This document shows, piece after piece, positions 5,947 to 20,339 of a DNA stretch of 39,275 nucleotides. The DNA lies in IMG/VR virus record IMGVR_UViG_3300025010_000136, positions 1 through 39,275 of that record; one strand, written 5' to 3'. This stretch comes from a virus. Every line of letters starts with the position of its first letter. Within the stretch, counting starts at the first letter, position 1. A program made the position numbers and the translations under genes. The notes beneath the pieces are model-generated. The model saw nothing but the letters and a program-made list of their open reading frames with translations. It had not been told where the DNA came from and did not search any database.

Positions 5947-7127
5947 ATGATATTTTTATATAAAAGCATATAAAACTGAAATAAATCCATCTTCCGAACA
6001 AATTGTTAAAATACATAAAACTCTTGGTACTTGTAGATTTATTTATAATTTTTATATATCGCATAATAAAGAAATATATGAAAAAGAAAAGAGATTTGTT
6101 TCAGGGATGGAATTTTCTAAATGGTTGAATAATGAATTTATACCAAGTAATTTAGAATATAAATGGATTAAAGAAGTATCAAGCAAAGCAATAAAAAAGG
6201 CAATTATGAATGCTGAAATTGCATTTAAAAGATTTTTTAATGGTAAATCTAAGTTTCCTAGATTTAAAAAGAAAAAGGATCAGAATGTAAAAGCATATTT
6301 TCCAAAAAATAATAAAACAGATTGGACCGTTGAAAGACATAGGGTTAAAATACCAACATTTGGTTTTATTAGATTAAAAGAAAAAGGTTATATTCCTGTT
6401 AATACTAAAGTGACAAGTGGCAAGTGGCACTATCTCTTATAAAGCAGGAAGATATTATGTTTCCGTATTAGTTGATGAAAATAAACAAATTAATAATTAT
6501 CAATCTTGTAATGAAGGAATAGGAATAGACCTTGGGTTAAAAGAGTTTGCAATAGTAAGTAATAGTATTGTTAAACAGAATATTAATAAAACAATAAAAG
6601 TTAAAAAACTAGAAAAAAAACTTAAACGTGAGCAGAGACGTTTATCAAAAAAGTATGAGAATAAAAAGAAAAGAGGTGGAAAATCTGTCGCTAATTCTGC
6701 AAATATAGATAAACAAATATTAAAAATCCAGAAAATTTTTCAAAGGCTTAATAATATTCGGACTGACTATGTAAATCAAATAGTTAGTGAATTGGTGAAA
6801 CCCAAACCAGAATTCATTACTATTGAAGATTTGAATATTAAAGGCATGATAAAGAATAAGCATTTATCAAAAGCAATTGCACAACAAAATTTCTATACAT
6901 TTAGAACGAAACTTCAAAGTAAATGTAAATTATATAATATTGAATTAAGAATTGTTGATAGATTTTATCCTTCAAGTAAATTATGTTCAGCATGTGGTGG
7001 AATTAAGAATGATTTAAAATTATCAGATAGAGTTTATATTTGTAGTGAATGTGGATTAGAAATTGATAGAGATTTGAATGCTGCAATTAATTTAAAAAAT
7101 GCTAAAGAATATACAATTGCTTGTTAA
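5947..7127 (+). pseudogene. tnpB: TnpB (IS605 OrfB) RNA-guided nuclease, broken by two frameshifts
   Basis: TnpB proteins are omega-RNA-guided RuvC-like DNA nucleases that favour retention of their transposon. An N-terminal part (to about 6420) and a C-terminal part (to 7127) lie in different frames. First lesion: ATG 5947 after GAAAGGA leads out of frame; removing one T from the T5 run at 5953-5957 would give MIFYIKAYKTEINPSSEQ, a normal TnpB N-terminus. Second lesion: CAAGTGG is tandemly duplicated at 6414-6427 (7 bp); removing one copy joins KVTSG to TISYKAGRYYVSV. The C-terminal part keeps the RuvC motifs GIGIDLGLKEF, TIEDLNIKGM and DRDLNAAINL and a CxxC...CxxC zinc ribbon. Without repair it should be inactive. 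Confidence 0.9.
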
Positions 7128-7285
7128 AATTGCATTGTACATATGTACCGATGGTCAGTTGGGAATTTACGATTGTGGAGTGTTACATCAAACTGTAGTA
7201 GGATTCGTTCAAGGCAGGACACGATGAACCAATAATTTTCTGGAATATAGATTATGAGTACATTTGTCTATATTTTTAGTGGCAA
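7128..7285 (+). ncRNA. Candidate omega RNA (reRNA) / right end of the TnpB element
   Basis: The segment after the tnpB stop carries the palindrome GTACATATGTAC (7137-7148) and words such as GTGGAGTGTTACATC and GGACACGATGAACCAA that I recall from right ends of TnpB elements, where the guide RNA scaffold is encoded. In known systems the scaffold overlaps the 3' end of tnpB and the guide is the flanking DNA, here the region around 7286-7310 leading into the next tail gene. Assignment by position and remembered motifs, not by alignment. Confidence 0.5.
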
Positions 7286-7292
7286 AAATTAA

Positions 7293-8363
7293 ATGCAATA
7301 TACTGACAATATAAATCTTAAAAAACCAGATGGGATAGACCCAGCTTCAATAACAGATATTAATAACAATAGCGATATAATAGATCAAATAATAAATAGT
7401 ATTACTACTGTACTTAATGGAGACTATCTTGTTACCCCATATACTATTTCAGGTGAAACAATAAAAATATTTAAAATTCAATCAAAAACAAGTAATGAAT
7501 ATACTATTGCAGAAATAAGAGCACCAGAAACTAATTCAAAAGAAGCTACTTTAGCTTTAATGCTACCACAAGGCGATATTAATGGTAATTCTTATTTTGT
7601 TGATTTTTCTATGCTCACATATGAGGATATACCTAGAGCTACTATTGTATTACAAACAAGAGGTGGCATACTATATCCTTTACATATTACTACAAGTGAT
7701 GGAGATCAAATCAAAAATCTAGTATCATTTAACCCAGATGGGACATTTGAATTAAAAAAAGATTTGTCTACTGATAATAGGAAAATTAAACTTGGCGGTT
7801 ATGGGGTTATTCAAGATAGACTTCATTGGAATAATGAAGAATATGCTGGGTATCGTAGAACATGTATAATGTTTAATTGCTATTATTCAACCCAACATGA
7901 AGATGAATACACACGTATAAGTAATTGGGTAGATTGTTACAAAATGGAATTTGATGGTACTGATAGTACAGGAGGTATAACTTTTTATCGAATACCTGCT
8001 GGTGAAGGAGTGTTTTATGGAGCAGATTGGGTACAAATTGGCAAAATAGATGCCACTGGAATATATGAAGGTCAAAATACATTAGAGTCAAAATACTATC
8101 AAAATAATAATATAATAGATGCGTCAATCACTTACGATCCTCCATCTTTAACAACTACTACATCAATTACAACAACATTAGACGTTATGGGAGTTAATAT
8201 TGGTGATTTTGTAATAGCTAGTTTTAGCAATGTACTTCAAGGTATTAATTTATTTGCAGAAGTTACTGCACAAGATATAGTAACTGTAACATTTTCTAAT
8301 CAAACAGGAAATACAATAGATTTAAATTCTGGCATATTGAGAGTTAAGGTGTTTAAAGCATAA
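7293..8363 (+). CDS. Putative phage tail/baseplate or fibre protein
   Basis: 356 aa, inside the tail operon between Dit and Tal. The N-terminus (MQYTDNINLKKPDGIDPASI, then DINNNSDIIDQII) is the type seen at the start of many Gram-positive phage tail and fibre proteins. The rest is beta-rich with an aromatic middle part and a Thr-rich segment near residues 285-300. There is no good ribosome-binding site: the bases before the ATG are the right flank of the TnpB element, and a suitable AAAGGAGA lies at 5863, left of the insertion. Translation is therefore probably reduced. Exact role unknown; receptor binding or baseplate decoration is an inference. Confidence 0.6.
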   Translation: MQYTDNINLKKPDGIDPASITDINNNSDIIDQIINSITTVLNGDYLVTPYTISGETIKIFKIQSKTSNEYTIAEIRAPETNSKEATLALMLPQGDINGNSYFVDFSMLTYEDIPRATIVLQTRGGILYPLHITTSDGDQIKNLVSFNPDGTFELKKDLSTDNRKIKLGGYGVIQDRLHWNNEEYAGYRRTCIMFNCYYSTQHEDEYTRISNWVDCYKMEFDGTDSTGGITFYRIPAGEGVFYGADWVQIGKIDATGIYEGQNTLESKYYQNNNIIDASITYDPPSLTTTTSITTTLDVMGVNIGDFVIASFSNVLQGINLFAEVTAQDIVTVTFSNQTGNTIDLNSGILRVKVFKA

Positions 8364-8389
8364 TACTATATAATAAGGAGCAGTGAAAT

Positions 8390-11300
8390 ATGAATACTTG
8401 GAATTATATAGATGATTATAAATGGAATGATTTAGATAATACTGTTTGGAGTAGTATTGCACAAAATCAAACAAGTGATAAACCATTTGAAATAGATTTG
8501 TCAAAAATTAATGAACAACCACAATTATATGTATGTAAACCAGATAATAATTTTACAACCGTTGGTATATTAAATGATGCATTTAATATAAAATTAAATT
8601 TAAAATTATCGCAAATAAATGAGTTAAATTTTTCAATATTTACAGATATTGAAATTAATCATAAGTTAGTAAGAAATCCTAATTATGATTTATTAAAATT
8701 TAGATATTTAATAAGGTTTGAATATGGTACATATAAAGAATATTTTATAATTAATGTTCCAGAAGATGTATCAGATGAATCTGGCTATATAAAAAATATA
8801 ACTTGTTATTCCTTGGCGTATTCATTAAATAATGAAATAATAAATGGGTATAAATCAAATAGTTCAATAAATGCAACGCAAGTATTAAATGATATATTAA
8901 TAAATACTGCATGGAGTATAGGAGATATAGATGTAAGTTTTGATATTATGTACAGACAATTTGATATATCAGGAAAATCTGCACTAGATGCTATTTATGA
9001 TATTGCTAATACATTTTCTGCTGTAGTTGTATTTGATAGTATGAATTATAAAATACATTTACGTAAAATAGAAGATGGATTAGATAGGGGACTTGTTTTT
9101 GATTACGGCAAATATATTGAAAATATTTCTAACAAGATAAATCCTGATAATTTTGCCACAGAATTATATATTTATGGCAAGGATAATTTAACTATTAGTA
9201 CTGCCAATGTTAATGGAGGCCCATATCTACAAAACTTTATGTTTTATATATATCCTTTTGAAAGAGATGAAAATAGAAACGTATTAAAACAATCTGATTA
9301 TATGAGTGATAATTTATGTCATGCTATATTAGATTACAATATATTGTTAGAAAGTAAAGATGGAGAATATAATGTTTTATATAATAATAAAATAACTTAT
9401 CAAGATAGTATTAATACTAAAACAACTGAATTAATAGATTTAAGAACTGAAATGTTTATTATACTTGACTCTCTTGACTTAGCACAAGCAAATAATTTAC
9501 CAATTTCTGAGTTGATTTTACAAAGAAATAATAAACAAATAGAAATTGATAATAAATTAAAAGAAATTAATTCTATATTATTTGATATAAATATTACTAA
9601 TGGATGTATTGCTGATGGTAGTATTAATATAACTATTGATGATAAGATTATAGATATTCCATTAACATTAGGCGATACAATAAATAATGTTGCTACAAAA
9701 ATAATTAATTATATTAATAATAAATATTATAATTATAATAATAAATTCCCTTTAATTCCTACACTGAAATGTAGTGTTATTGATAATGTTATTAGTATAA
9801 TTTATTTTACAACGAAAGATAAAATAGATTTCAATGTTACATTTGCTGATACAGATAGTACAGGTGTTATTTGTTCCATTGGGAATAGAACAAATAATGG
9901 TTTAGAAAATCATATTAGTGATATAAATAATCAAATAACTACATTAGTTAATTTATTGTCTATGGAAAGTAATTTTAGTTCAGATGAAATTCTAGAATTA
10001 AAAAGATCGTTTATTATTAAAAAAGAAATAAGAAATGAATACATTTCAGATGCTAAAGAATTGCTTATATGGGGTAAGAAGGAATTTGAGAAATATTATT
10101 ATCCTCCAACAGTTATTGAAATAGGGATTGTAGATTTATTTAGTTGTATTGATATTGGATGTCAATATGATCGAGATAAATTACAATTAGCAGAAACAGT
10201 TAGAGTAAAGTATGATAAATTCAATTTAGATATTAAAGCAAAAATAATAGAAATTACATATGATTTTGAGAATAACAATATAGATTTAGTTATTAGCAAT
10301 ATTAAAGAAATAAGCAAAGATAAAGATAAGTTTGTAAAAATGTTGAATCAGAGTATAAATAGCGGAATGATTGTTGAAGCAAATAAAGATAGTTGGAATG
10401 ATATATCTACCACAAACAACCAATTAGCAAATGTAATAGATAAATTAAGTGGAAATATAAAAAATGAATTATTATTAAACGTTAATGAAAATGTTGAAAT
10501 ATCTAAAAGAGGTATTTATATAACTTCTCCTGATAATCCATTAAATGTATTAATAATTCAAAATGGTGTTTTAGCTATTAGTAATGATGGAGGTAATACT
10601 TGGGGACATTGTATCTCGACATCGGGAATTTTGGGACAAAAAATTATAGGAAAACTACTTTGCGGTCTAAATTTAGAAATTGATGCATCTGATGCAGAAG
10701 GTAATAAAACATTTATTGTTAATCAAAATGGTGTGCAGATTTTTAATATGATAATGTCATTAATACGTTCAGATAAGAAAACACAAATTTTACTCGATCC
10801 AACTTCTGGTTTTAAGATCCAAAAAAATACCGGAACAGTAGATATTCCAGTATGGACAGATATATTCTATATAAATAACGATGGTGATTTAATATCTACA
10901 GGAAATATACAAATAGGAACTGGTAATTCTATTTTCAAAGCAGACGATCAAGGTATTTATCTAGGAAATAATGAGTTTAATTCAGCACCATTCCGTGTTG
11001 ATCTTTCAGGAAACGCATACATGTCAAAATTAACAGCAGAAAATGCAGATATTAAAGGGAATATTGACTGTGATTCATTAAAAATAAGTGGTACTAATAT
11101 TCTTGATGAATTAAATCAAAAAATTAATGGTACTTATTTGGCAGATAGTAGTGTTGGTGCATCAAAAATAAAAACCAACGAATTGATCGTTGGAACAAAT
11201 ATTACTATGGGAGCGAATGCAACTATAACTTGGGGGCAAGTAACAAGTCAACCGTTTATACCTTCGTCTGCAAGTGACGTTGGAGCATTATCTACAACAT

Positions 11301-11650
11301 GGGCTAATGGACTTAGTTCTTTGCCTACATTTATTACTTCAACAAAAATAACTCAAACAACAATTGAAAGTCCTAATATTATAGGTGGTACAATTACAAG
11401 TAATACAACTATTGATGTTGGAACAGATGCAAAAATAGGACGCAATTTAATTCTAACAGCAGAAGAATTTAGTACAATATTATGGAAAGATTCTCTAAAT
11501 GTAGTATATGGAAAAATAGAAATGGATTCACCTGCAAAGAGTTTATCAATATATGGCACTAATTCAACTCAAATTGGCACAACAGGGAAAAATACATATA
11601 TAGATGGCAATGTTATATTTGAAAATCCTGTAGTTGCAGTATTAGGCTAA
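8390..11650 (+). CDS. Phage tail-tip / minor structural protein (Tal-like, prophage endopeptidase tail family)
   Basis: 1086 aa. The N-terminal half (about residues 40-390) matches the phage minor structural/Tal region that caps the tail below Dit, with segments such as DAFNIKLNLKLSQINELNF and ITCYSLAYSLNNEII. A charged middle part (about 330-560) precedes a C-terminal part rich in beta-helix-like repeats (about 690-1080; for example GKLLCGLNLEIDASDAEGN and SSVGASKIKTNELIVG), typical of fibre or host-recognition modules. ATG 8390 follows AAGGAG. It ends 4 bases before a convergent gene. The family is well supported; no peptidase active site was identified. Confidence 0.8.
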   Translation: MNTWNYIDDYKWNDLDNTVWSSIAQNQTSDKPFEIDLSKINEQPQLYVCKPDNNFTTVGILNDAFNIKLNLKLSQINELNFSIFTDIEINHKLVRNPNYDLLKFRYLIRFEYGTYKEYFIINVPEDVSDESGYIKNITCYSLAYSLNNEIINGYKSNSSINATQVLNDILINTAWSIGDIDVSFDIMYRQFDISGKSALDAIYDIANTFSAVVVFDSMNYKIHLRKIEDGLDRGLVFDYGKYIENISNKINPDNFATELYIYGKDNLTISTANVNGGPYLQNFMFYIYPFERDENRNVLKQSDYMSDNLCHAILDYNILLESKDGEYNVLYNNKITYQDSINTKTTELIDLRTEMFIILDSLDLAQANNLPISELILQRNNKQIEIDNKLKEINSILFDINITNGCIADGSINITIDDKIIDIPLTLGDTINNVATKIINYINNKYYNYNNKFPLIPTLKCSVIDNVISIIYFTTKDKIDFNVTFADTDSTGVICSIGNRTNNGLENHISDINNQITTLVNLLSMESNFSSDEILELKRSFIIKKEIRNEYISDAKELLIWGKKEFEKYYYPPTVIEIGIVDLFSCIDIGCQYDRDKLQLAETVRVKYDKFNLDIKAKIIEITYDFENNNIDLVISNIKEISKDKDKFVKMLNQSINSGMIVEANKDSWNDISTTNNQLANVIDKLSGNIKNELLLNVNENVEISKRGIYITSPDNPLNVLIIQNGVLAISNDGGNTWGHCISTSGILGQKIIGKLLCGLNLEIDASDAEGNKTFIVNQNGVQIFNMIMSLIRSDKKTQILLDPTSGFKIQKNTGTVDIPVWTDIFYINNDGDLISTGNIQIGTGNSIFKADDQGIYLGNNEFNSAPFRVDLSGNAYMSKLTAENADIKGNIDCDSLKISGTNILDELNQKINGTYLADSSVGASKIKTNELIVGTNITMGANATITWGQVTSQPFIPSSASDVGALSTTWANGLSSLPTFITSTKITQTTIESPNIIGGTITSNTTIDVGTDAKIGRNLILTAEEFSTILWKDSLNVVYGKIEMDSPAKSLSIYGTNSTQIGTTGKNTYIDGNVIFENPVVAVLG

Positions 11651-11654
11651 TAGT

Positions 11655-12197
11655 TTATTTCTTTAAAATAACATTTAAAAAATAATCATATTTTACATAT
11701 GTCCTATCTTTATGAGCAATATAATTAATATTGTCTATTTTCATACCTGTGCCATTAAATATACCTGGATATTTATTATTTAAATTACTACAATTAGCAA
11801 ATATAATATTATTTACTTCAATAAATTTTACATTGTCTTTAATATAAGTTTGTGTTACATTATCAACATTTACAATAGGTTCTTCAGGTAAAGTAGGATT
11901 AACAATCGGTGTGGTAGCAGGAGGTGTAATTACACCACTTCCACTTCCATCACTATCACCAAAAATAAAATTTCCTGTCTCGCTATCCCATTGAAAAATT
12001 AATCCAGATTGTGTAACAAATTTTGCATTAATATATAGTTGACCATTTTGGAATTCAGGATTGGTTTTTAGTTGATCAAACATTAATTGTAATTTATCTA
12101 TTGATGGTAGATTTGTATTTGCAAAAGCGAATGAAGCGTTGAATAAAATTGTTGCTGGAACGACAGTAAGCATAATTAATTTTTTTAGTTTTTTCAT
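11655..12197 (-). CDS. Small secreted protein of unknown function (prophage accessory gene)
   Basis: 180 aa. A clear Sec signal peptide (MKKLKKLIMLTVVP, hydrophobic core, predicted cut after AFA near residue 26) is followed by a small globular part, a G/S/P/T-rich linker near residues 85-115 and a C-terminal domain with IYIAHKDRTYVKYDYF-like beta strands (precisely NYIAHKDRTYVKYDYF). No family recognised. It is transcribed against the tail operon from its own consensus promoter (12235-12263), as expected of a gene expressed in the lysogen. Ribosome-binding site AAGGAG. A surface or superinfection-related role is possible but unproven. Confidence 0.7.
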   Translation of the reverse strand: MKKLKKLIMLTVVPATILFNASFAFANTNLPSIDKLQLMFDQLKTNPEFQNGQLYINAKFVTQSGLIFQWDSETGNFIFGDSDGSGSGVITPPATTPIVNPTLPEEPIVNVDNVTQTYIKDNVKFIEVNNIIFANCSNLNNKYPGIFNGTGMKIDNINYIAHKDRTYVKYDYFLNVILKK

Positions 12198-12234
12198 AGA
12201 TATTCAACTCCTTTTTGTTTTTAGTTTTAGGTGC

Positions 12235-12263
12235 ATTATACCATAGTTTATATGAAGATGCAA
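12235..12263 (-). promoter_or_regulatory. Sigma-A promoter for the secreted protein
   Basis: On the minus strand TTGCAT (12258-12263) and TATAAT (12235-12240) are 17 bases apart, about 40 bases upstream of the start codon at 12197. It is divergent from the promoter at 12348. Confidence 0.8.
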
Positions 12264-12347
12264 GCATTGGCATTATAACTATTAAATTATTAAAATAATT
12301 TTTTATTTAATATTAATTTCAATTAATAAAATAATAAAATAAATATA

Positions 12348-12376
12348 TTGACATCTATTTTCCTTTATAGTATTAT
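12348..12376 (+). promoter_or_regulatory. Sigma-A promoter for the zincin gene
   Basis: TTGACA (12348-12353) and TATTAT (12371-12376) with a 17-base spacer; start of transcription expected near 12383, about 30 bases before the ATG. Confidence 0.85.
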
Positions 12377-12401
12377 ATCATTAATAAAAAACTATAAAGG
12401 A
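12361..12401 (+). repeat. Inverted repeat linking the promoter -10 region to the Shine-Dalgarno site
   Basis: TCCTTTATAGT (12361-12371) is the exact reverse complement of ACTATAAAGGA (12391-12401), which contains the ribosome-binding site of the gene at 12412. The left arm overlaps the promoter spacer and -10 box, so only RNA started further upstream would contain both arms. It may be a DNA operator, a translation-masking hairpin in read-through RNA, or both. Confidence 0.75.
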
Positions 12402-12411
12402 GAATACAAAT

Positions 12412-12930
12412 ATGTTATATTTAAATCAAGTTGAATTAAGTGATAGTATTTTAAATGATATTAATAATTTTTTAAATTGTTTTAAATTAAATGATATTAA
12501 TATTATTATTGCAAATGTTAATGAAAAAGAATCTTATTGGACACAAGATAATTATTTTAAATCTATACCATTTCCTGGTAATAATGTCTTTCGAGCATGG
12601 AGCAAACCAACAGAAAATAAAATTATTATTTTTCAAGATCAAGCAGAAACAGAATTAAGTATTTTTTGGTTAATTATTCATGAAATAACACATATAAAAT
12701 TAAGGACTGAATGGTTTTTACTTTATAATACTATAAAAATTGAAACTGAATCTTTAAGGAAAAGATTAAATATTTCAGAAGAAGATTGTTTAATAAAAGA
12801 AATATATGATAATGATTTTAGAAATAATGATCCAGAAGAAGTTTTATGTGATAGAGTGGCAAATGCAATTATCGGTGAAGTGTTAGATCGTAATTGGTGG
12901 AAAAATAGAATAGATAATATTGATAATTAA
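12412..12930 (+). CDS. ImmA/IrrE-like zinc metallopeptidase (HEXXH zincin)
   Basis: 172 aa. The zincin motif HEITH is at residues 90-94 in the context WLIIHEITHIKL, and a downstream acidic segment DPEEVLCDRVANAI (Glu142/143) is placed where ImmA/IrrE-type peptidases carry the third ligand. In known prophages and ICEs such peptidases cleave a repressor to trigger induction. No XRE repressor is fused or adjacent; the next gene encodes an RHH protein, so the substrate is unclear. It has its own promoter and an inverted repeat covering its ribosome-binding site. The zincin call is strong; the ImmA role is inferred. Confidence 0.7.
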   Translation: MLYLNQVELSDSILNDINNFLNCFKLNDINIIIANVNEKESYWTQDNYFKSIPFPGNNVFRAWSKPTENKIIIFQDQAETELSIFWLIIHEITHIKLRTEWFLLYNTIKIETESLRKRLNISEEDCLIKEIYDNDFRNNDPEEVLCDRVANAIIGEVLDRNWWKNRIDNIDN

Positions 12931-12938
12931 ATTTTATA

Positions 12939-12979
12939 AAGTATTAATATAAATATACTGTTTATATTAATACTTTTCT
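12939..12979. terminator. Strong hairpin terminator after the zincin gene
   Basis: AAGTATTAATATAAA (12939-12953) pairs perfectly with TTTATATTAATACTT (12961-12975) over 15 bp around a 7-base loop, followed by TTCT. The T-poor tail suggests moderate efficiency in the plus direction. Confidence 0.7.
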
Positions 12980-13027
12980 CCCACTTTTAAAAAATACATA
13001 AATGATATACAATAATAAGATGGGAGA
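12977..13027 (+). promoter_or_regulatory. Extended -10 promoter and Shine-Dalgarno-masking repeat for the RHH gene
   Basis: TGATATACA (13003-13011) resembles an extended -10 element without a good -35. TCTCCCA (12977-12983) is complementary to TGGGAGA (13021-13027), which holds the ribosome-binding site. It is the weaker of three such arrangements in this block. Confidence 0.4.
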
Positions 13028-13036
13028 GTGATTTTT

Positions 13037-13390
13037 ATGGATGAAAATAATGTACATGGATACTTATTATCTAATAAAACTTCATCAACTAAAAACAAAA
13101 CAAAGAATAAGGATGATAAGATAGTTGTTAGAATAGGTGCAGAATTAAAAGAACAATTTACTAAGTATGTTGAAAACAAAGGGGCTACTGTTTCAGATTA
13201 TATTAGGCAAATGATTGTACAAGAGATGCATGAAAATCTAACTCAAGAGAATGTAGGTTCTGTAAAAGAATTTTTGTCAGAATATTATAATCCAGAAGCA
13301 AATATTTCTAAAGACATTCAAACTCTTAAAGAAAAAATGATTTTGTTAGAATATAGATTAAATGAAAGGTTAAATGAAAATAAAGAGTAA
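13037..13390 (+). CDS. Ribbon-helix-helix (Arc/CopG-like) DNA-binding protein
   Basis: 117 aa from ATG 13037, chosen because GGGAG at 13022-13026 is 10 bases upstream; a GTG at 13028 is too close. After a basic, disordered N-terminus (K/T/N-rich, about residues 15-27) comes an RHH-type segment KIVVRIGAELKEQFTKYVEN, then a second helix with the SDYIRQMIVQEM signature (residues about 28-64). The C-terminal part is predicted helical and charged. Likely a local repressor or partition-type DNA binder of the accessory block; the inverted repeats upstream of this and neighbouring genes are candidate targets. Cognate site unknown. Confidence 0.7.
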   Translation: MDENNVHGYLLSNKTSSTKNKTKNKDDKIVVRIGAELKEQFTKYVENKGATVSDYIRQMIVQEMHENLTQENVGSVKEFLSEYYNPEANISKDIQTLKEKMILLEYRLNERLNENKE

Positions 13391-13467
13391 TTCTATGCAA
13401 ATAAGTGTTATTTTAAGATAGTAGTAAATAAATCCATTATATGCTTTGTTATCACATTGGGTGAACG

Positions 13468-13496
13468 TTGTAATAACAAATTGAAACCTCTATAAT
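13468..13496 (+). promoter_or_regulatory. Sigma-A-like promoter for the zinc-ribbon gene
   Basis: TTGTAA (13468-13473) and TATAAT (13491-13496) with a 17-base spacer; transcription expected to begin near 13503. Confidence 0.7.
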
Positions 13497-13544
13497 ATGT
13501 TTATAGGGTTAATATTCATTATAAATATTAAATTATGGAGGTTT
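13484..13544 (+). repeat. Inverted repeat covering -10 box and Shine-Dalgarno site
   Basis: AAACCTCTATAAT (13484-13496) and ATTATGGAGGTTT (13532-13544) form a 13-bp stem with one G-U pair. The right arm holds the GGAGG ribosome-binding site; the left arm overlaps the -10 box and would be missing from RNA started at this promoter. Same layout as at 12361-12401. Confidence 0.75.
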
Positions 13545-13549
13545 TTATT

Positions 13550-14023
13550 ATGTTAAACTTTATTCAAAATCCTATTTCAAACCTTATTTCAAATCTCAGC
13601 CAATTCGTTAACCACAAAGTAGAAATCACCACCAGAGATTCAAGAATTACATTTATCTATCAAGATTTTAACTATGATATTTGTGATAATGATTTAGTTT
13701 TGATGGATGAAATAGAAACTGATTGTAGAGTATACATACCCTTGAATGAAATTACAGATGTTACTAACCTTACTAATGATTTATATTCTACAGTTGTGGA
13801 TGTTAAGCATGGAGATGAATTAGAAAATAAGATGATTTCTATTTGTTGTGCGGAGCATAAACCCATTCCAGTTACATGTAGTAAATGTGGATATGTATTT
13901 GGAATTGAGGAGCAAGTATGGAGAATTGAACAGCAGGGACAATATGGAAGTGCGTATGATGGTGATTGGATATGTAAAAAATTGTGTGACAAATGCGTTA
14001 GTACATTAATAGAAAGTGATTGA
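13550..14023 (+). CDS. Zinc-ribbon protein of unknown function
   Basis: 157 aa from ATG 13550, placed 8 bases after GGAGG; an upstream GTG-type start at 13535 would lie inside the ribosome-binding hairpin. The C-terminal half is cysteine-rich: SICCAEH, CSKCGYVFG, WICKKLCDKC, suggesting one or two metal sites (CxxC and CxxC). The N-terminal 90 residues are predicted beta-rich (KVEITTRDSRITFIYQDF). No family recognised. It stands alone between its own promoter and a terminator, an accessory (moron-like) unit. Confidence 0.6.
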   Translation: MLNFIQNPISNLISNLSQFVNHKVEITTRDSRITFIYQDFNYDICDNDLVLMDEIETDCRVYIPLNEITDVTNLTNDLYSTVVDVKHGDELENKMISICCAEHKPIPVTCSKCGYVFGIEEQVWRIEQQGQYGSAYDGDWICKKLCDKCVSTLIESD

Positions 14024-14060
14024 AAATATAGGGTGTGAAATATCACCCTATATTTTAGTA
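14023..14060 (+). terminator. Hairpin terminator after the zinc-ribbon gene
   Basis: AAAATATAGGGTG (14023-14035) pairs with CACCCTATATTTT (14044-14056), 13 bp with an 8-base loop. It begins at the last base of the stop codon. Confidence 0.7.
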
Positions 14061-14132
14061 TTAATTTTTGTTCAATAATAACAGGTGAGTAAGATGATTA
14101 ATTTAGCAGGAATAAAGTAAGGGGAATTTTAA

Positions 14133-14366
14133 TTGTATAAATTAAATATAGATATGATTGATGAAATGAATTATGAGATACATATTGATAATGATAATAT
14201 TGCTATTAATAATATTGAAAATTATATTTATGGGTATATTAAGGAATATGGTTATGAACCAGAATTTATAGAATTATATGAAGTTATTAATCAATATATT
14301 GATGATTTAGATTTTTTCAATCTATATAGATTAAAACGGATTACAACAAATTTATATGATATTTAA
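14133..14366 (+). CDS. Small acidic protein, function unknown
   Basis: 77 aa, TTG start 11 bases after AAGGGG. Strongly acidic and tyrosine-rich (for example NYIYGYIKEYGYEPEF and YDLD-type segments), probably helical. No family recognised. Very AT-rich like its neighbours. Its stop is directly followed by AAGGAG for the broken nuclease gene, so the two were probably co-translated. Confidence 0.5.
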   Translation: MYKLNIDMIDEMNYEIHIDNDNIAINNIENYIYGYIKEYGYEPEFIELYEVINQYIDDLDFFNLYRLKRITTNLYDI

Positions 14367-14380
14367 GGAGATGATAATTA

Positions 14381-14739
14381 TTGGTCATATATTGATTATT
14401 TATTAGCATTAATTAATGAACGGAGAGAAAATATTTTTACTGTTGAAAGTATATTAAATGGGTATATTGTTAGTAATTTTAAGTTAATTTTTCCAAAATA
14501 TATTTTTATTGAAAAAGAATTTAAAATAGATAAATATAGAATAGATATATTGGCTAAAGAAATAGAATTAAATAGAGATGTAATAATTGAATTAAAAAAA
14601 AGACAATAAAAATACAACAAGTCAATTATTACAATATAGTAAGTATTTTTCTAATCCTGTATTAATTTCGGTAAATAATGGTAAGATTAAAAATAAAAGT
14701 AAAGATATTATATATTACGGAATTATTTTAAATAAATAA
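14381..14739 (+). pseudogene. PD-(D/E)XK nuclease-like gene, frameshifted
   Basis: The frame YWSYIDYLLALINERREN leads to KYRIDILAKEIELNRDVIIELKK, which holds the Asp...Glu-x-Lys pattern (RIDILA and IIELK) of NucS/DUF91-type PD-(D/E)XK endonucleases, then stops. Removing one A from the A8 run at 14594-14601 continues it as DNKNTTSQLLQYSKYFSNPV and on to a stop at 14737, the usual QLLQY segment after this motif. The start is also out of frame: AAGGAG at 14365-14370 points to TTG 14381, which needs one base removed to enter the frame. Probably decayed, unless both are sequencing errors. A role in defence or DNA repair is only inferred. Confidence 0.7.
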
Positions 14740-14777
14740 CACTTGTAATAATTCAATTGAGAATGTTAATTAATTAA

Positions 14778-14806
14778 TTGAAAGAGGTCTTTATTATTTG
14801 TATTAT
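14778..14806 (+). promoter_or_regulatory. Sigma-A-like promoter upstream of the coiled-coil gene
   Basis: TTGAAA (14778-14783) and TATTAT (14801-14806) with a 17-base spacer, about 45 bases before the ATG at 14855. Confidence 0.6.
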
Positions 14807-14854
14807 TAAAGAAATTCAAAATAACAATTAAAATAATGAGGAGGTAATTTATTT

Positions 14855-15136
14855 ATGAGTATCAATAATGAATTAATTTGTGGTGCTTTATCAAATAGAC
14901 CTGCACCAAAAAGAAATGTAATAGACAATGTAGAATTAATTAATAATAATGGTGCATTTGTAATAAAAAAAACAAAAATTGTTGAATTAGAAGAAACAGT
15001 AGATATCAATAAAATAAATAATATTATAAATGAAATAGAAAATAAAAAGCAATTATTATTATTAGAAATAGAAAACTTAAATAATGAAAAATTAAAATAT
15101 GAAGATTATTTATTACAAATTAAAAAAGATAAGTAA
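14855..15136 (+). CDS. Small coiled-coil phage protein, function unknown
   Basis: 93 aa, ATG preceded by GAGGAGG. The N-terminus SINNELICGALSNRPAPKRN is uncharged to basic; residues about 50-90 are a clear coiled coil (IENKKQLLLLEIENLNNEKL). Short coiled-coil proteins at this position often chaperone or anchor tail fibres, but no family was recognised. It opens the second stretch of tail genes and lies 31 bases before the protease gene. Confidence 0.55.
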   Translation: MSINNELICGALSNRPAPKRNVIDNVELINNNGAFVIKKTKIVELEETVDINKINNIINEIENKKQLLLLEIENLNNEKLKYEDYLLQIKKDK

Positions 15137-15167
15137 TTAAAATAATAAGGAAGGGAGGTGATAAATT

Positions 15168-16742
15168 ATGTCATATTATCCAACTTATTATCCAATGGTT
15201 ACTTGTCAGTATAAAGATTCGACAACAGAAATACCAAGTTGTTTAGCAAATGCACTCGCCACAATGTTAGAAATATTTACTTATAGAGAACATGGTTCAA
15301 CAGCGGTATATAAATATTATGAAAACTGGTATACGCAAGGTACATTCTCATATAAATGGATTTATGGAAACAGAATATTAAATACAGATACAAATGAAGG
15401 AATGTATATAAGTCAAACATTACCAGATTTAGTAAATGATGGTGCTCCTGTTTATATACATTTAAAAGGTATTGATACTTATCCTAATTGTGATATTGCA
15501 GTTAGTGCAGTATATAGTAGTTTAATAGATGAAGCAAGGAATTATAAAATATCTAGTTATTTTCAAACATTTGATACTACTGAAGTTAAAACTGCCATAC
15601 AAAATAATGGTGGAGTTCTTATTGAAATGCATAACGGCGATCACTTATGGAATGTTTCTAATGATGGCATGATAGCACCTGTTAATAATGTTGATGAAAA
15701 TTATACACACGTTATGGTTGTGATTGGATGGACAACTATAAACAATGTAGAACATTGGATAATACACAATAACTGGGGTGATTGGTGGGGAGACAGTGGT
15801 TTATTATATTGTCCTACAAATCATTCTCAAATACTAGAATATTGGGTACTAACAGATGATGTGTCTAATTATATAACATATACATTATTCCCATCTGATG
15901 AACCAAAAGTTATTAGTAGAAATGATAAAGGTTTCACAGTAGATTGGTCAAGTATCCCTAATAAAGATAAATATGGTGGAGAACTTGTATATCGCTTATA
16001 TTATATAGAAACAAATCGTGTACTTAGTTTAGATACACAATATACATTTGATAATTTATCTTATGGGACACAATATAATTTACATATTGAAGCAATAGAT
16101 ATTTATAATAATGATGAAGTCAGAGATATATCATATACACAAATAGCAACAGTAAATCCTTGTCCACCAACATTATCATTAATAAGTAAGACAGATAATT
16201 CAATTAGTGTTAAAGTTGATTATATGTCAGGATTGGCAGAAGGTGATATTGTATATATTTCTCCTTCTGGAACACAATCTTCAATAGAAACATATCCTGG
16301 GCAAGAAGTTACTTTTACTGGTTTAACACAAGGAATTGAATATGAATTACATGCAGTATCATGGGTAACTGGTGGAGATAGTTCAAGACTATACAGTCTT
16401 ACTAATGGTGCATCAATATATATAACTCCTACTAGTAGACCAAGTAATTTTAGTTGGACAACACCAAAAATTTCAGGAGATCCTGCAACAAATTTAACTG
16501 CTACAGAATGGAATGGATTATGTACAAGAATTAATGAGTTTAGGCAATATAAAGGTTTGTCTGCTAGTACCTTTACTACAGCAAGTAGTGGGGGTATTTT
16601 TTATGCAAGTATGTTTAATCAAGCAAGGAATTCAATATATGATATGAATTCTACGGGGTTGCCAAGTGTAAAAAGTTCTGGAGATTATTTATTTGCTAGT
16701 GATTTGAATTCTTTGGTTAGTTGTTTAAATGCAATAGTATAG
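15168..16742 (+). CDS. Papain-like (C1A) cysteine protease with fibronectin-like region, tail-associated
   Basis: 524 aa. The catalytic set of peptidase family C1A is visible: Cys25 in IPSCLANALATMLEIF, His181 in YTHVMVVIGW, and Asn201 in IHNNWGDWWGDSG, the equivalent of the papain NSWG motif. There is no signal peptide or propeptide, so it is probably delivered as part of the tail. Residues about 245-425 look like two fibronectin type III repeats (KGFTVDWSSIPN, SISVKVDY). The C-terminal 90 residues (ATEWNGLCTRINEFRQYKG onward) resemble C-terminal modules of clostridial phage tail proteins. Strong ribosome-binding site GGGAGGTG. Substrate unknown: host surface protein or tail maturation are both possible. 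Confidence 0.75.
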   Translation: MSYYPTYYPMVTCQYKDSTTEIPSCLANALATMLEIFTYREHGSTAVYKYYENWYTQGTFSYKWIYGNRILNTDTNEGMYISQTLPDLVNDGAPVYIHLKGIDTYPNCDIAVSAVYSSLIDEARNYKISSYFQTFDTTEVKTAIQNNGGVLIEMHNGDHLWNVSNDGMIAPVNNVDENYTHVMVVIGWTTINNVEHWIIHNNWGDWWGDSGLLYCPTNHSQILEYWVLTDDVSNYITYTLFPSDEPKVISRNDKGFTVDWSSIPNKDKYGGELVYRLYYIETNRVLSLDTQYTFDNLSYGTQYNLHIEAIDIYNNDEVRDISYTQIATVNPCPPTLSLISKTDNSISVKVDYMSGLAEGDIVYISPSGTQSSIETYPGQEVTFTGLTQGIEYELHAVSWVTGGDSSRLYSLTNGASIYITPTSRPSNFSWTTPKISGDPATNLTATEWNGLCTRINEFRQYKGLSASTFTTASSGGIFYASMFNQARNSIYDMNSTGLPSVKSSGDYLFASDLNSLVSCLNAIV

Positions 16743-16835
16743 ATGAACAGTAGTAAAATAATTATTTAAAATCTAAAAATATAAAATAAAAATAAAACAA
16801 TAATAATATTAATTAATAAAAAGGAGGTATAAAAT

Positions 16836-17012
16836 ATGTTATATGAAATTAGTGACCAAGTTAAGAATAATATATTAGTATTTTTAGATAGAGTAAGTTA
16901 TGTTGGATTTAGGGAAATTACTGTGGTGAATGAAGTATTAAATGTGTTAAACAATCCAATTAAAGAATCAATGCTCAAAGAGAAAGGAGTAGATGATAAA
17001 AAGAAAATATAA
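16836..17012 (+). CDS. Small phage protein (58 aa)
   Basis: Starts at ATG 16836 after AAGGAGGT and reads MLYEISDQVKNNILVFLDRV, then YVGFREITVVNEVLNVLNNP, ending KDDKKKI-like (VDDKKKI). Predicted two helices. The good ribosome-binding site and tail-operon position support a real gene. Similar short proteins occur among late genes of Gram-positive phages; no function known. Confidence 0.7.
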   Translation: MLYEISDQVKNNILVFLDRVSYVGFREITVVNEVLNVLNNPIKESMLKEKGVDDKKKI

Positions 17013-17071
17013 TAATTATATAAAATATTAATCATATAATATAAAAATTATAAATAAAGGAGGTAGATTAA

Positions 17072-17713
17072 TTGTCAATATTTTCTCCATACAACGAATT
17101 TTTTCAAATACTCTGGTTCACTGATGATAATGGAAATAAAATATCAGTTCAAAGATTAAATGAACAACATAAAATCGTAAATAATAGAATTATATTAAAA
17201 AATGTTCCAGATTCTTTTTATAAAGTATCAATAACATCTAAATATGAGATAGATATAAATCAAGCAATAACTGGAACATCATACTATAAAGTTGACTATG
17301 AAACAGGATATGTTTTTTTTGATTCTTCGCTTGAAGGTCAAACAATAACAGTAGCACAATATTTCGGTCGTGGGATCGTTTATATAATGGCAAAACGCAC
17401 ACAATTACAAAACGTAAATAATTTGTATACTTCCGATAATGTTGAAGATTTTGCCAATGAAATAACACAAAGAGTAGATAATTTAGTTTTAAATTCTGGT
17501 TCTGGTGATGCAGAAATTATTGATAGTAGAACTTCTACTCCAACAGGTATTACATATTCAACTTTAAAAAATAGATTAGATTTAGAATATGATGATTTTG
17601 TTAATAAACAAGGTGATAATAATATAACTGGTTCATTAAGTTTTAATAATAGATTTAAATTTGTATATAATTCAACAACTGATTCTCTAGATATAGAAAT
17701 AATACCAAATTAA
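17072..17713 (+). CDS. Phage baseplate/tail fibre protein
   Basis: 213 aa, TTG start after AAGGAGGT. The N-terminal 110 residues are beta-rich (FFQILWFTDDNGNKISVQRL, YYKVDYETGYVFFD). Near residues 148-168 it has AEIIDSRTSTPTGITYSTL, a motif common in baseplate upper proteins and fibres of Gram-positive siphoviruses just before a coiled coil or receptor domain. Short C-terminal beta module. Part of the same operon as the papain-like protein. Role by motif and position. Confidence 0.65.
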   Translation: MSIFSPYNEFFQILWFTDDNGNKISVQRLNEQHKIVNNRIILKNVPDSFYKVSITSKYEIDINQAITGTSYYKVDYETGYVFFDSSLEGQTITVAQYFGRGIVYIMAKRTQLQNVNNLYTSDNVEDFANEITQRVDNLVLNSGSGDAEIIDSRTSTPTGITYSTLKNRLDLEYDDFVNKQGDNNITGSLSFNNRFKFVYNSTTDSLDIEIIPN

Positions 17714-17734
17714 AAAGTAGGTGATAATGATAAT

Positions 17735-18067
17735 ATGACAGTTATTGCACGTTTATTTAGAAATGGAAATCTACATATTGCAGGAAATTTATATACAACA
17801 GAACCTACATTTGATGATACAGAATTAATTGATGATACTACTTTATTAGATGATGCATATGTTTTTGATACTGCAAATGAATTTGATACATTTTTTAGTT
17901 ATTTATTTAGTTTAACAATCTCTCAATTAAATGTAGATACTTTTAGAATTGATTCACATGGCAATTTAATAACTCCACAATTAAATCAATCTGCAAGTAA
18001 TATTAATATAAATAATAATAAACATTTATCAATTACTGGTGTCTTAACTGAGAACACCAGTTTTTAA
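17735..18067 (+). CDS. Small tail-associated protein, function unknown
   Basis: 110 aa, ATG after GTAGGTGATAAT. Acidic, beta-rich N-terminus (RLFRNGNLHIAGNLYTTEPT) followed by Asp/Thr-rich repeats TEPTFDDTELIDDTTLLDDA. Seen at the end of an operon of fibre proteins; possibly a fibre or adaptor subunit. Its last codons form the left and right arms of a terminator. Confidence 0.55.
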   Translation: MTVIARLFRNGNLHIAGNLYTTEPTFDDTELIDDTTLLDDAYVFDTANEFDTFFSYLFSLTISQLNVDTFRIDSHGNLITPQLNQSASNININNNKHLSITGVLTENTSF

Positions 18068-18072
18068 TTTTT
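18035..18072 (+). terminator. Rho-independent terminator overlapping the gene end
   Basis: ACTGGTGT (18035-18042) and ACACCAGT (18054-18061) form an 8-bp stem followed by TTTTTAATTTTT. The stop codon of the gene before it lies in the T tract. It marks the end of the strongly AT-rich block. Confidence 0.75.
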
Positions 18073-18097
18073 ATAATAAATTAAGGAGAGTGAGAGT

Positions 18098-18949
18098 ATG
18101 GCACAAAATCCTTTAAGTGATTTTTTAACTACGTTTAAAAATGGCACATCAAAAGCATTGCGAGTTGTTTCTGAAAATTTTGTTACAGGTGGATATTCCC
18201 CTGCTAATTTAACAATGCAAAATGCTGTAACAGCAGATGGCAATGGAACAAATTTAGATGTAAATGATTATGCAACTGCTATACTAGAAGTTAGAGGTAC
18301 TTTTTCTGCAACAATTAATTTTGAAGGTTCAATTGATGATACAAATTGGTATCCTATAGTAGCAACGAAAAATGATAGTACACAAAGTAGTACGACTACT
18401 ACGGTAGGGTTATATGAAATAAAAGTTGCTACTATAAAATCTGTACGTGCAAGAGTTAGTGGTTACGCTAGTGGTAGTATTACTGTAATTGGTAAGGTTA
18501 GTCCGTTGGTTAATTCTGAGAAGAGTATCCAACTAACTGGTAGTAAAGTTGCAGAAGGAATAGCAGATTTTGTACTAAATGCAGAAGGTACGTTGTTAGC
18601 AAGTGCTACAAGAACTAGCACTACAACCAGCCCAAATATGACGAATAAAAATGCAAAAGGGATTTTAGTATCACTAAACGTAACTGTTGCATCTGGCACA
18701 GGTGGTTTGCAAGTTGTTATAAGAGGACATGACCCTGTTACTGGAACAGTTTATTGGCTAAACGCACTCCCTGTTGCTGTTGTTGCCACTGGAATAAATG
18801 TCTATGAAGTTTGTCCTGCTGTTAACACAGCAGCATCAGGGGTAAAACAAAGAACATCGGGGGAGCTACCTAGAACGTGGTCTGTTTCCGTCATTCATGG
18901 TGATTCGAGCAGCTACACTTACAGTGTTGGCTATTCGTTGGGGGTGTAA
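18098..18949 (+). CDS. Phage tail/fibre protein, compositionally mosaic
   Basis: 283 aa, ATG after AAGGAGAG. Beta-sandwich-like: residues 60-125 contain ATINFEGSIDDTNWYPIVAT, a pattern common in phage tail and virion decoration proteins; the C-terminal 130 residues are a second beta-rich domain (GLQVVIRGHDPVTGTVYWLN). Base composition changes inside the gene: 60-base lines near 18121 and 18301 are about 27-28% GC, near 18421 and 18661 about 37-38%, and near 18721 about 47%. This suggests recombination within the gene. Likely an adhesion or decoration protein. Confidence 0.6.
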   Translation: MAQNPLSDFLTTFKNGTSKALRVVSENFVTGGYSPANLTMQNAVTADGNGTNLDVNDYATAILEVRGTFSATINFEGSIDDTNWYPIVATKNDSTQSSTTTTVGLYEIKVATIKSVRARVSGYASGSITVIGKVSPLVNSEKSIQLTGSKVAEGIADFVLNAEGTLLASATRTSTTTSPNMTNKNAKGILVSLNVTVASGTGGLQVVIRGHDPVTGTVYWLNALPVAVVATGINVYEVCPAVNTAASGVKQRTSGELPRTWSVSVIHGDSSSYTYSVGYSLGV

Positions 18950-18952
18950 AAT

Positions 18953-19144
18953 ATGGGTTTAGTAACTACAGCAGCTGAAACAACAACTGAATACATTTTA
19001 AACGTAACAGATGAAACAAATGGGAATAGGTATGTATACAAGTTTGGTAAAGACCAAGACATACAAATAAGTAAGCGAGAAGCGGAATTGCTCGCACAAT
19101 TTGAAATTGACAAAAAGCAACCGCCACAAGAAATACTCTTATAA
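18953..19144 (+). CDS. Small phage tail-operon protein (63 aa)
   Basis: Starts 3 bases after the previous stop, so it is probably translationally coupled. MGLVTTAAETTTEYILNVTD, then YVYKFGKDQDIQISKREAEL, a short beta hairpin and helix. No family recognised. Last gene before the RHH/recombinase module. Confidence 0.55.
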   Translation: MGLVTTAAETTTEYILNVTDETNGNRYVYKFGKDQDIQISKREAELLAQFEIDKKQPPQEILL

Positions 19145-19169
19145 CTAACCAACGAAAAGCGTTAGTTAG

Positions 19170-19196
19170 ATAACTCATATAACTAATATAACTTAA
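19170..19196. repeat. Three tandem 9-base repeats with ATAACT half-sites
   Basis: ATAACTCAT, ATAACTAAT and ATAACTTAA follow one another without gaps. The same ATAACT word makes up the palindromes around the RHH/recombinase promoters at 19410-19421 and 19456-19476. Candidate RHH repressor sites beyond the end of its own gene, or arm-type sites for the recombinase. Confidence 0.6.
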
Positions 19197-19208
19197 AAAC
19201 AGACAAAA

Positions 19209-19240
19209 GAGAAGACCTCTTATTTTTTAGAGGTCTTCTC
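19209..19240 (-). terminator. Terminator of the minus-strand RHH gene
   Basis: GAGAAGACCTCT (19209-19220) and AGAGGTCTTCTC (19229-19240) form a perfect 12-bp stem overlapping the last codons of the RHH gene; on the minus strand it is followed by TTTTGTCTGTTTTT. Confidence 0.75.
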
Positions 19241-19381
19241 TAGCGCGATACTAATTAGTTGTCTTATGGCTTCGTTCCTGTTTTTAAGCTTATTATCATG
19301 CCAGTATTTTTCTATTTTTGCAAGCATATCGTTTGGGAATGTAGCCAGGACCTGTGTATTTTTATCCTTGTCAACAGCCAT
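19220..19381 (-). CDS. RHH (Arc/CopG-type) repressor next to the recombinase
   Basis: 53 aa reading MAVDKDKNTQVLATFPNDML, then AKIEKYWHDNKLKNRNEAIR and QLISIALEKTSKK. The pattern of a beta strand (QVLATFPNDML), a first helix (AKIEKYW) and RNEAIRQLISIALEK is a classic short RHH protein that binds DNA as a dimer of dimers. GGAGG precedes the ATG. It is divergent from the tyrosine recombinase, and its promoter spacer holds the palindrome AGTTATATAACT. Likely autorepressor and regulator of the recombinase. Too short for many ORF callers. Confidence 0.85.
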   Translation of the reverse strand: MAVDKDKNTQVLATFPNDMLAKIEKYWHDNKLKNRNEAIRQLISIALEKTSKK

Positions 19382-19403
19382 GCCTTAGCACCTCCATTAA
19401 AAT

Positions 19404-19432
19404 ATTATAAGTTATATAACTCATATTGACAA
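19404..19432 (-). promoter_or_regulatory. Promoter of the RHH gene
   Basis: Minus-strand TTGTCA (complement of 19427-19432) and TATAAT (complement of 19404-19409) with a 17-base spacer. The spacer contains the palindrome AGTTATATAACT (19410-19421), so binding there should block it. The -35 overlaps that of the divergent recombinase promoter. Confidence 0.8.
19410..19421. promoter_or_regulatory. Operator palindrome O1 (AGTTATATAACT)
   Basis: Perfect 12-bp palindrome made of two inverted ATAACT half-sites, inside the RHH promoter spacer and 4 bases upstream of the recombinase -35. Confidence 0.7.
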
Positions 19433-19454
19433 GCCCTCTATGCAGCATTATAAT
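19426..19454 (+). promoter_or_regulatory. Consensus sigma-A promoter of the tyrosine recombinase
   Basis: TTGACA (19426-19431), 17-base spacer, TATAAT (19449-19454): a perfect consensus. Such a strong promoter is normally kept silent by a repressor, which fits the flanking operators. Confidence 0.9.
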
Positions 19455-19455
19455 T

Positions 19456-19476
19456 AGTTATATAGGTTATATAACT
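19456..19476. promoter_or_regulatory. Operator cluster O2 downstream of the -10 box
   Basis: AGTTAT (19456-19461) and ATAACT (19471-19476) in inverted orientation, with an inner perfect palindrome GTTATATAAC (19466-19475). It covers the expected transcription start of the recombinase. Confidence 0.65.
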
Positions 19477-19496
19477 TAATGGTGAGGTGTTGATTA

Positions 19497-20339
19497 ATGT
19501 TGCTTAGTGAGGCTTGGAAATTATATGAGGGCGATAAGCGGTTGTTGGGATACTCTCCCCACACGCTTAATGCATACCAAATACAGTCGAACTTATTAAT
19601 TAGACACATAGGAGACATTGAAATTGAAGATGTTACCCATCTTTCTCTTAAAGAGTATTTAATCAAGCAAGATCATCTTAAGCCTGCTAGTATCGGGCAT
19701 AGAATAAAGTTTATACGCGCCTTCTTTAGATACCTGCATGAAGAAGGTTTTATTGAACGAAATGTTTCCTCGAAACTAAAGGAACCAAAGCAGGGCGCCA
19801 GGATCCCAAAGGCGCTGAATACTGAAGAAGTGGAATTGTTACGGGATGCCTGTAGTAGTTCGCTTGAAAAGGCACTTATGGAGTTTTTCTACGCCTCAGG
19901 TTGCCGGATAGGCGAGGTGCATGGACTAAACATAAAGGATGTTAATTGGCAGACGAGGTCAGCGACGGTCATCGGCAAGGGCAATAAACAGCGCGAGGTG
20001 TATTTTACTGAGAGGTGCAGGATTTGGCTTCAGAGATATCTGCAGTCCCGCAAAGATGAACACGAAGCACTATTTGTCACCGTCCGGAACCCTATCAGGC
20101 GCATGTCGATAGCCAGGATAAGGGAGATAGTGAAAGATATTGCCAAACACTCAGAGGTCGAAGTAAACGTCTATCCGCATAGATGGCGACATACGACAGC
20201 CACCACGATGTTGGAGAATGGGGCACCATTACATGTTATTATGTCCAGTATGGGCCACGCTAGGCCCAGTACGACGTTAATTTACGCGCAGCTCAGCGGG
20301 GAGCGTCGCCGCCAGGAGTATAATAAATATTTTAGGTAG
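19497..20339 (+). CDS. Tyrosine recombinase/integrase (XerC/D-like)
   Basis: 280 aa. N-terminal SAM-like DNA-binding domain (about 1-95) and C-terminal catalytic domain with the full set: Arg137 in ASGCRIGEVHGL, Lys in GKGNKQREVYF, His228/Arg231 in PHRWRHTTATTM, His254 in MGHARPSTTLIY and nucleophile Tyr263. ATG 19497 follows GTGAGGTG. It is driven by a consensus promoter under apparent RHH control and ends in a terminator just before the second tail cassette. It could integrate the whole element or exchange tail cassettes; no att site was identified. GC is intermediate between regions A and B. Confidence 0.9.
   Translation: MLLSEAWKLYEGDKRLLGYSPHTLNAYQIQSNLLIRHIGDIEIEDVTHLSLKEYLIKQDHLKPASIGHRIKFIRAFFRYLHEEGFIERNVSSKLKEPKQGARIPKALNTEEVELLRDACSSSLEKALMEFFYASGCRIGEVHGLNIKDVNWQTRSATVIGKGNKQREVYFTERCRIWLQRYLQSRKDEHEALFVTVRNPIRRMSIARIREIVKDIAKHSEVEVNVYPHRWRHTTATTMLENGAPLHVIMSSMGHARPSTTLIYAQLSGERRRQEYNKYFR

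What the first reader, a model, noticed from the sequence alone, without database searches (positions are those of the whole stretch)
12361..13544. Accessory genes whose Shine-Dalgarno sites are complementary to their own promoter region
For the genes at 12412 and 13550 (11- and 13-bp arms), and more weakly 13037 (7 bp), the ribosome-binding site pairs with a segment overlapping the -10/spacer. Read-through RNA from the tail operon would fold and hide the site, while RNA from the local promoter lacks the left arm. This is the logic known from the T4 lysozyme gene e. It would keep lysogen-type genes silent in late infection. Alternatively they are protein operators.
Basis: partly seen in the sequence, partly recalled or inferred. 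Interest (0 to 1): 0.7.

Follow-up and report, generated by a model that had tools for sequence, protein, structure and literature searches.

The report
Promoters that hide downstream ribosome sites
Small regulator and cargo genes of a low-GC phage family carry, inside or beside their own promoters, a short sequence that can pair with the ribosome-binding site, so that by design only messages started at the local promoter should be translated; this logic is known from phage T4 and the Bacillus sigG gene but is used here as a repeated, co-varying module.

Summary
In the window, 12356-12371 pairs with 12391-12406 (16 bp, one G-U), 13483-13496 with 13532-13545 (14 bp, one G-U), and, weakly, 12976-12983 with 13021-13028 (8 bp). 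Each right arm covers the Shine-Dalgarno (SD) site. Each left arm lies in the promoter region, upstream of the predicted start of the local RNA. The first two are far beyond chance; the third is only p about 0.02 alone. Related phage contigs carry the same regulator-cargo module eight times. Pairing is kept while sequence and spacing change, and homologous leaders pair better with their own arm than with a relative's. Modelled opening of the SD costs 7-16 kcal/mol in long RNA for nine of twelve modelled genes, and 0-3.5 in local RNA. This favours an RNA hairpin over a protein operator; an operator-like palindrome lies elsewhere (13445-13480). However, the tail operon is not the general source of long RNA: seven of eight modules have no terminator between regulator and cargo, so regulator mRNA itself should run into the cargo with its SD hidden. 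Bacillus subtilis sigG is a Firmicute precedent. Verdict: new variant of a known mechanism; nothing tested at the bench.

The parts
12348..12376 (+). promoter of gene 12412: TTGACA, 17 bp, TATTAT
   Evidence: 11 of 12 consensus positions
12356..12371 (+). left (anti-SD) arm TATTTTCCTTTATAGT inside the promoter spacer
   Evidence: 0 of 3000 shuffles
12391..12406 (+). right arm ACTATAAAGGAGAATA holding the SD AAAGGAG (12396-12402)
12412..12930 (+). 172-aa protein with HEITH motif, possibly an ImmA/IrrE-like metallopeptidase; no family match
   Evidence: family guess from the motif only
12938..12976 (+). AT-rich hairpin plus T-run, probable terminator after gene 12412
   Evidence: 16-bp perfect stem
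12976..12983 (+). left (anti-SD) arm TTCTCCCA, just 5' of the -35 region of the RHH gene
   Evidence: weak alone (59 of 3000)
12986..13013 (+). probable promoter of the RHH gene: TTTAAA, 16 bp, TACAAT
   Evidence: 9 of 12 positions
13021..13028 (+). right arm TGGGAGAG, the SD of the RHH gene
13037..13390 (+). 117-aa ribbon-helix-helix regulator
   Evidence: PHROG 876 E 9e-6, Arc-like PHROG 582 E 5e-4; weak Pfam matches
13445..13480 (.). operator-like palindrome TTTGTTATCACA/TGTAATAACAAA over the -35 of 13550; kept in G008 with a central inversion
13468..13496 (+). promoter of gene 13550: TTGTAA, 17 bp, TATAAT
   Evidence: 10 of 12 positions
13483..13496 (+). left (anti-SD) arm GAAACCTCTATAAT, overlapping the -10
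   Evidence: 1 of 3000 shuffles
13532..13545 (+). right arm ATTATGGAGGTTTT holding the SD
13550..14023 (+). 157-aa cargo protein with two CxxC motifs, function unknown
   Evidence: model pLDDT 65, no significant fold match
14023..14056 (+). intrinsic terminator after the cargo gene

Best explanation
Each accessory gene has its own promoter, and that promoter carries an anti-SD sequence in its spacer/-10 (cargo genes and 12412) or just 5' of the -35 (regulator genes). RNA that starts further upstream contains the anti-SD and folds into a hairpin over the SD, so the gene is not translated. RNA that starts at the local promoter begins downstream of the anti-SD and is translated. For the cargo the likeliest long RNA is the mRNA of the regulator gene directly upstream, with read-through from other operons second. 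The hairpin would therefore keep the cargo off whenever the regulator is made, and leave its expression to its own promoter, which the regulator probably represses. Shown by sequence: arms, position, conservation, covariation, lack of terminators. Inferred: start sites, hairpin formation in the cell, translational effect, repression by the regulator.
For: Own-versus-swapped test over 17 leaders: mean stem score 20.8 against 14.8 +/- 1.1, no permutation of 20,000 as high; within homologous cargo leaders p=0.021, within regulator leaders p=0.005. Covariation over 8 cargo leaders: 6 of 14 pairs changed on both sides, score 0.304 against 0.156 shuffled, 0 of 500 as high, best at zero slide. SD opening cost is 7.0-15.6 kcal/mol in long RNA for nine of twelve modelled module genes and 0.1-3.5 in local RNA; the six highest costs among 83 genes of the three contigs are all module genes. 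Excess complementarity only for genes with an upstream gap of 95 nt or more (13.7 against 11.9 +/- 0.4, above all 5000 permutations), none for operonic genes. No terminator between regulator and cargo in 7 of 8 modules. Precedents with the same geometry: T4 e, soc, 49, I-TevI (PMC3014915), I-TevII/III, segB, mobE (PMC2988022); spoIIG-sigG read-through (PMC5942855).
Against: No RNA or protein data; start sites are predicted from consensus. The RHH gene stem is weak by itself. G003 12784, 33341 and 34027 are weak, G001 8631 and G007 3642 do not pair well with their own SD, and the antirepressor genes G002 20487 and 29159 lack the arm. All relatives come from a handful of metagenome contigs. The window's 13550 local RNA itself is partly folded (SD 21% open). 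One cargo row was placed in register by hand, and the leaders were chosen after seeing the pattern.
Confidence: 0.74

Rival explanations
1. The arms are a DNA operator: a protein, such as the module's own RHH or HTH regulator, binds the inverted repeat and blocks the promoter.
For: Inverted repeats in promoters next to a regulator gene are typical operators; the arms overlap the -10 or spacer.
Against: Near-identical arms occur with unrelated regulators (RHH in W and G008, HTH in G002 29915 and G007). The -10 to SD distance varies from 43 to 60 nt in cargo leaders. Arms differ between leaders but stay complementary to the local SD. A separate palindrome (13445-13480) shared by W and G008 fits an operator better.
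Confidence: 0.1
2. The RNA hairpin works as described, but insulation is mainly against read-through from the phage late (tail) operon, so that these genes stay silent in lytic growth.
For: Several modules lie between tail genes; no + strand terminator found between the tail gene end 11650 and 12345; plausible for gene 12412, which has no regulator upstream.
Against: The G003 12467/12784 module lies outside the tail genes; an opposite-strand gene lies between tail genes and module in the window; the constant neighbour of the cargo is the regulator.
Confidence: 0.3
3. The hairpins act as transcription terminators or attenuators rather than on translation.
For: Stable stems in intergenic regions.
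Against: No T-run follows; the SD and start codon do. No match in Rfam at these places, nor in the terminator scan.
Confidence: 0.05
4. Chance: AT-rich promoters and SD sites are both low-complexity, so pairing is accidental.
For: The RHH stem alone is p about 0.02; other AT-rich inverted repeats abound here.
Against: Shuffles, swaps and covariation.
Confidence: 0.05

Closest known systems
Phage T4 gene e (also soc, 49, I-TevI) read-through hairpins
   Same: Long RNA hides the SD; the local late promoter sits in or next to the left arm, so local RNA is translated (PMC3014915; about 100-fold effect for e).
   Different: Here sigma-70-type promoters in a low-GC phage; several unrelated genes per phage; regulator-cargo pairs; likely long RNA is the neighbouring regulator mRNA rather than an early operon.
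T4-type homing endonuclease genes I-TevI/II/III, segB, Aeh1 mobE
   Same: Inserted accessory genes shielded from host-operon transcripts by the same hairpin logic (PMC2988022).
   Different: No endonuclease here; cargo proteins of unknown function with a dedicated HTH/RHH gene.
Bacillus subtilis sigG (spoIIG read-through hairpin)
   Same: Firmicute gene whose read-through RNA is proposed to be blocked by a 20+ bp hairpin that cannot form in RNA from its own promoter (PMC5942855).
   Different: Single chromosomal sporulation gene, not a repeated mobile module.
IS10/IS50 protection from external transcription (own knowledge, not read here)
   Same: Mobile gene shielded from impinging transcripts by SD-hiding structure.
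   Different: No transposase here. DDE transposases of Carboxydocella and relatives found do show the same anti-SD -10 layout.

Membership tests
T4 gene e-type read-through hairpin | left arm complementary to the SD | tested here: met
   strong for 12412 and 13550, weak for 13037
T4 gene e-type read-through hairpin | local promoter placed so that its RNA lacks the left arm | tested here: met
   predicted -10 and start positions; starts not mapped
T4 gene e-type read-through hairpin | pairing conserved by compensating change | tested here: met
T4 gene e-type read-through hairpin | longer transcripts really cross the gene | tested here: inconclusive
   no terminator before the cargo in 7 of 8 modules; no RNA data
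T4 gene e-type read-through hairpin | translation of long RNA is reduced | not testable with these tools
   needs reporter assays
protein operator | conserved sequence and fixed spacing tied to the cognate regulator | tested here: not met
   arms vary with the SD and are shared across unrelated regulators; spacing varies
intrinsic terminator | stem followed by a T-run | tested here: not met
known RNA element (Rfam 15) | match above gathering score | tested here: not met
   only RAGATH-18 at 7172-7235 in the window

The most novel reading that the evidence does not exclude
A two-isoform switch: a conserved upstream promoter-like site (TTGAC[AT], 17 bp, TAWNAT) found before the regulator in most modules makes a long RNA in which regulator and cargo SD sites are both hidden, so firing it lowers regulator synthesis, a bacterial counterpart of long undecoded transcript isoforms in yeast.
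Probability: 0.12. Interest if true: 0.75.

Novelty: new variant of a known kind. Interest (0 to 1): 0.55.

Why it matters
It shows how a phage can carry insertable regulator-cargo modules with no terminator between them and still keep expression of each gene tied to its own promoter. The rule (anti-SD in the spacer or next to the -35) is simple, recognisable in sequence and may help to find transcript-insulated genes; similar layouts turned up before transposase genes and in a second leader family of Lachnospiraceae.

Tried and rejected
Genome-contig search for cargo relatives: none. Phage collection, DNA and protein: none. A general feature of clostridial genomes: rejected; in 391 genomes of one class the relaxed pattern had 3 hits (one in the seed genome) against 1 for the backward control. 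Divergent short ORFs using the left arm as SD on the minus strand: looked at by eye, spurious. Structure models of the 157-aa and 172-aa proteins were of low confidence and gave no significant fold match. The permuted-arm control pattern gave 0 hits against 10 (7 distinct) for the complementary one in viral contigs, but some of those 10 are coding or terminator hits, so this is only supportive.

Full report
Setting. The window is a 39,275-base virus record. Bases 1 to about 18.9 kb are AT-rich (about 25% GC) and carry tail genes; the rest is about 46% GC. An overlapping record (G001) is identical over the stretches compared, window 7412-18735.

Observation. The pairings exist and are somewhat longer than stated: 16 bp at 12412, 14 bp at 13550, 8 bp at 13037, each with one G-U pair. 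Against dinucleotide shuffles, stems as good that cover the SD core occur in 0, 1 and 59 of 3000 (12412, 13550, 13037). The long RNAs of 12412 and 13550 fold with z-scores of -4.4 and -4.0; that of 13037 is ordinary at -0.9. The promoters are good matches for 12412 and 13550, although promoter-like sites as a whole are no more common here than in shuffles, so start sites remain predictions.

Relatives. Only a few contigs share the 157-aa cargo. Across W/G001, G002, G003, G007 and G008 there are eight regulator-cargo modules. Regulators are RHH or HTH proteins; cargoes are mostly one family, including short, distant members in G001 and G002. In cargo leaders the left arm ends between -1 and +6 relative to the first base of the -10; in six of eight regulator leaders it ends 22-29 bases before the -10, next to the -35. 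In the regulators the -10 starts only 11-17 nt before the SD core, so the local RNA starts almost at the SD.

Covariation. SD sites differ between leaders (ATGGAGGTTT, AAAGGAGAG, GGGAGAG, TAGGAGTG and others), and left arms differ with them: AAACCTC before ATGGAGGTTT, CTCTCCTT before AAAGGAGAG, TTCTCCCA before TGGGAGAG, CATTCCTAT before ATAGGAGTG. Swapping arms among leaders lowers complementarity (20.8 to 14.8, sd 1.1), and does so even within homologous groups (p=0.021 cargo, p=0.005 regulators). On the eight cargo leaders 83% of cells pair, 6 of 14 pairs show a change on both sides, the covariation score (0.304) exceeds all 500 shuffles, and every slid register scores lower (0.046 to 0.170). 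Caveat: one row was set in register by hand and the sequences are related.

Specificity. Among 85 genes with an SD in W (1-19.4 kb), G002 and G003, those with an upstream gap of 95 nt or more pair better with their own upstream DNA than permuted (13.7 against 11.9, sd 0.4); operonic genes do not (8.3 against 8.8). Modelled SD opening in long RNA costs 15.6, 11.0 and 12.3 kcal/mol for 12412, 13037 and 13550, and 0.2, 1.6 and 3.4 in local RNA; the six highest of 83 genes are all module genes. Exceptions: G003 12784, 33341 and 34027 weak, G001 8631 and G007 3642 not well paired, antirepressor genes without the arm.

Source of long RNA. Seven of eight modules have no intrinsic terminator in the 35-100 nt from regulator stop to cargo -10. 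The regulator mRNA should therefore include the cargo gene with its SD hidden. This explains the arm at every cargo promoter, including the module outside the tail genes, better than tail-operon read-through, which remains possible for 12412. Most regulators also have a second, upstream promoter-like site, P1 (seen by eye), whose RNA would carry the regulator's left arm.

Operator or RNA. An imperfect palindrome, TTTGTTATCACA/TGTAATAACAAA, covers the -35 of 13550 and recurs in G008, which has a related RHH protein, with its nine-base centre inverted. That is the better operator candidate. The SD arms are shared by modules with unrelated regulators and have variable spacing, as expected for an RNA hairpin.

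Beyond this family. A scan for TCTCCTTTATAAT N25-55 AAAGGAGA found DDE transposases in Carboxydocella and relatives and a second leader family in Lachnospiraceae with the same layout. In 391 genomes of one class the relaxed pattern is near background, so the design is tied to particular mobile elements.

Known cases. T4 e, soc, 49 and I-TevI (PMC3014915), I-TevII/III, segB and mobE (PMC2988022), and the spoIIG-sigG read-through hairpin (PMC5942855) use the same logic. The principle is therefore known; the repeated module, its place in sigma-70-type promoters of paired regulator and cargo genes, and the likely use against the regulator's own mRNA are the new elements. My literature searches cover open-access text only.

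Noticed in passing
window 18700-19500: Abrupt change from about 25-36% to 46% GC; the identical record G001 ends at window 18735. May be two joined phages, neighbouring prophages or a misassembly.
   Followed up: partly
window 6107-7235: TnpB-like gene split into two overlapping frames, followed by a RAGATH-18 RNA at 7172-7235.
   Followed up: no
window 13445-13480; G008 (L101) cognate region: Operator-like palindrome whose nine-base centre (GTTCACCCA) is inverted between the two phages while the arms are kept.
   Followed up: partly
L028, L035, L037, L047, L050, L052, L057, L061: Leader family in Lachnospiraceae genomes and phage contigs: anti-SD beside TATAAT, then ACAGG-hairpin-CCGAGTA, then AAAGGAGA, before varied small ORFs; no Rfam match at the leader in the three loci scanned.
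   Followed up: partly
L040, L043, L048, L054, L071: DDE transposase genes (confirmed by Pfam in L040 and L054) with the same anti-SD -10 layout, a probable guard against external transcription.
   Followed up: partly
window 12340-12376; upstream of regulators in G002, G003, G007, G008: Conserved AT-rich stretch followed by TTGAC[AT], 17 bp, TAWNAT at the start of modules; possible second promoter or recombination boundary.
   Followed up: no
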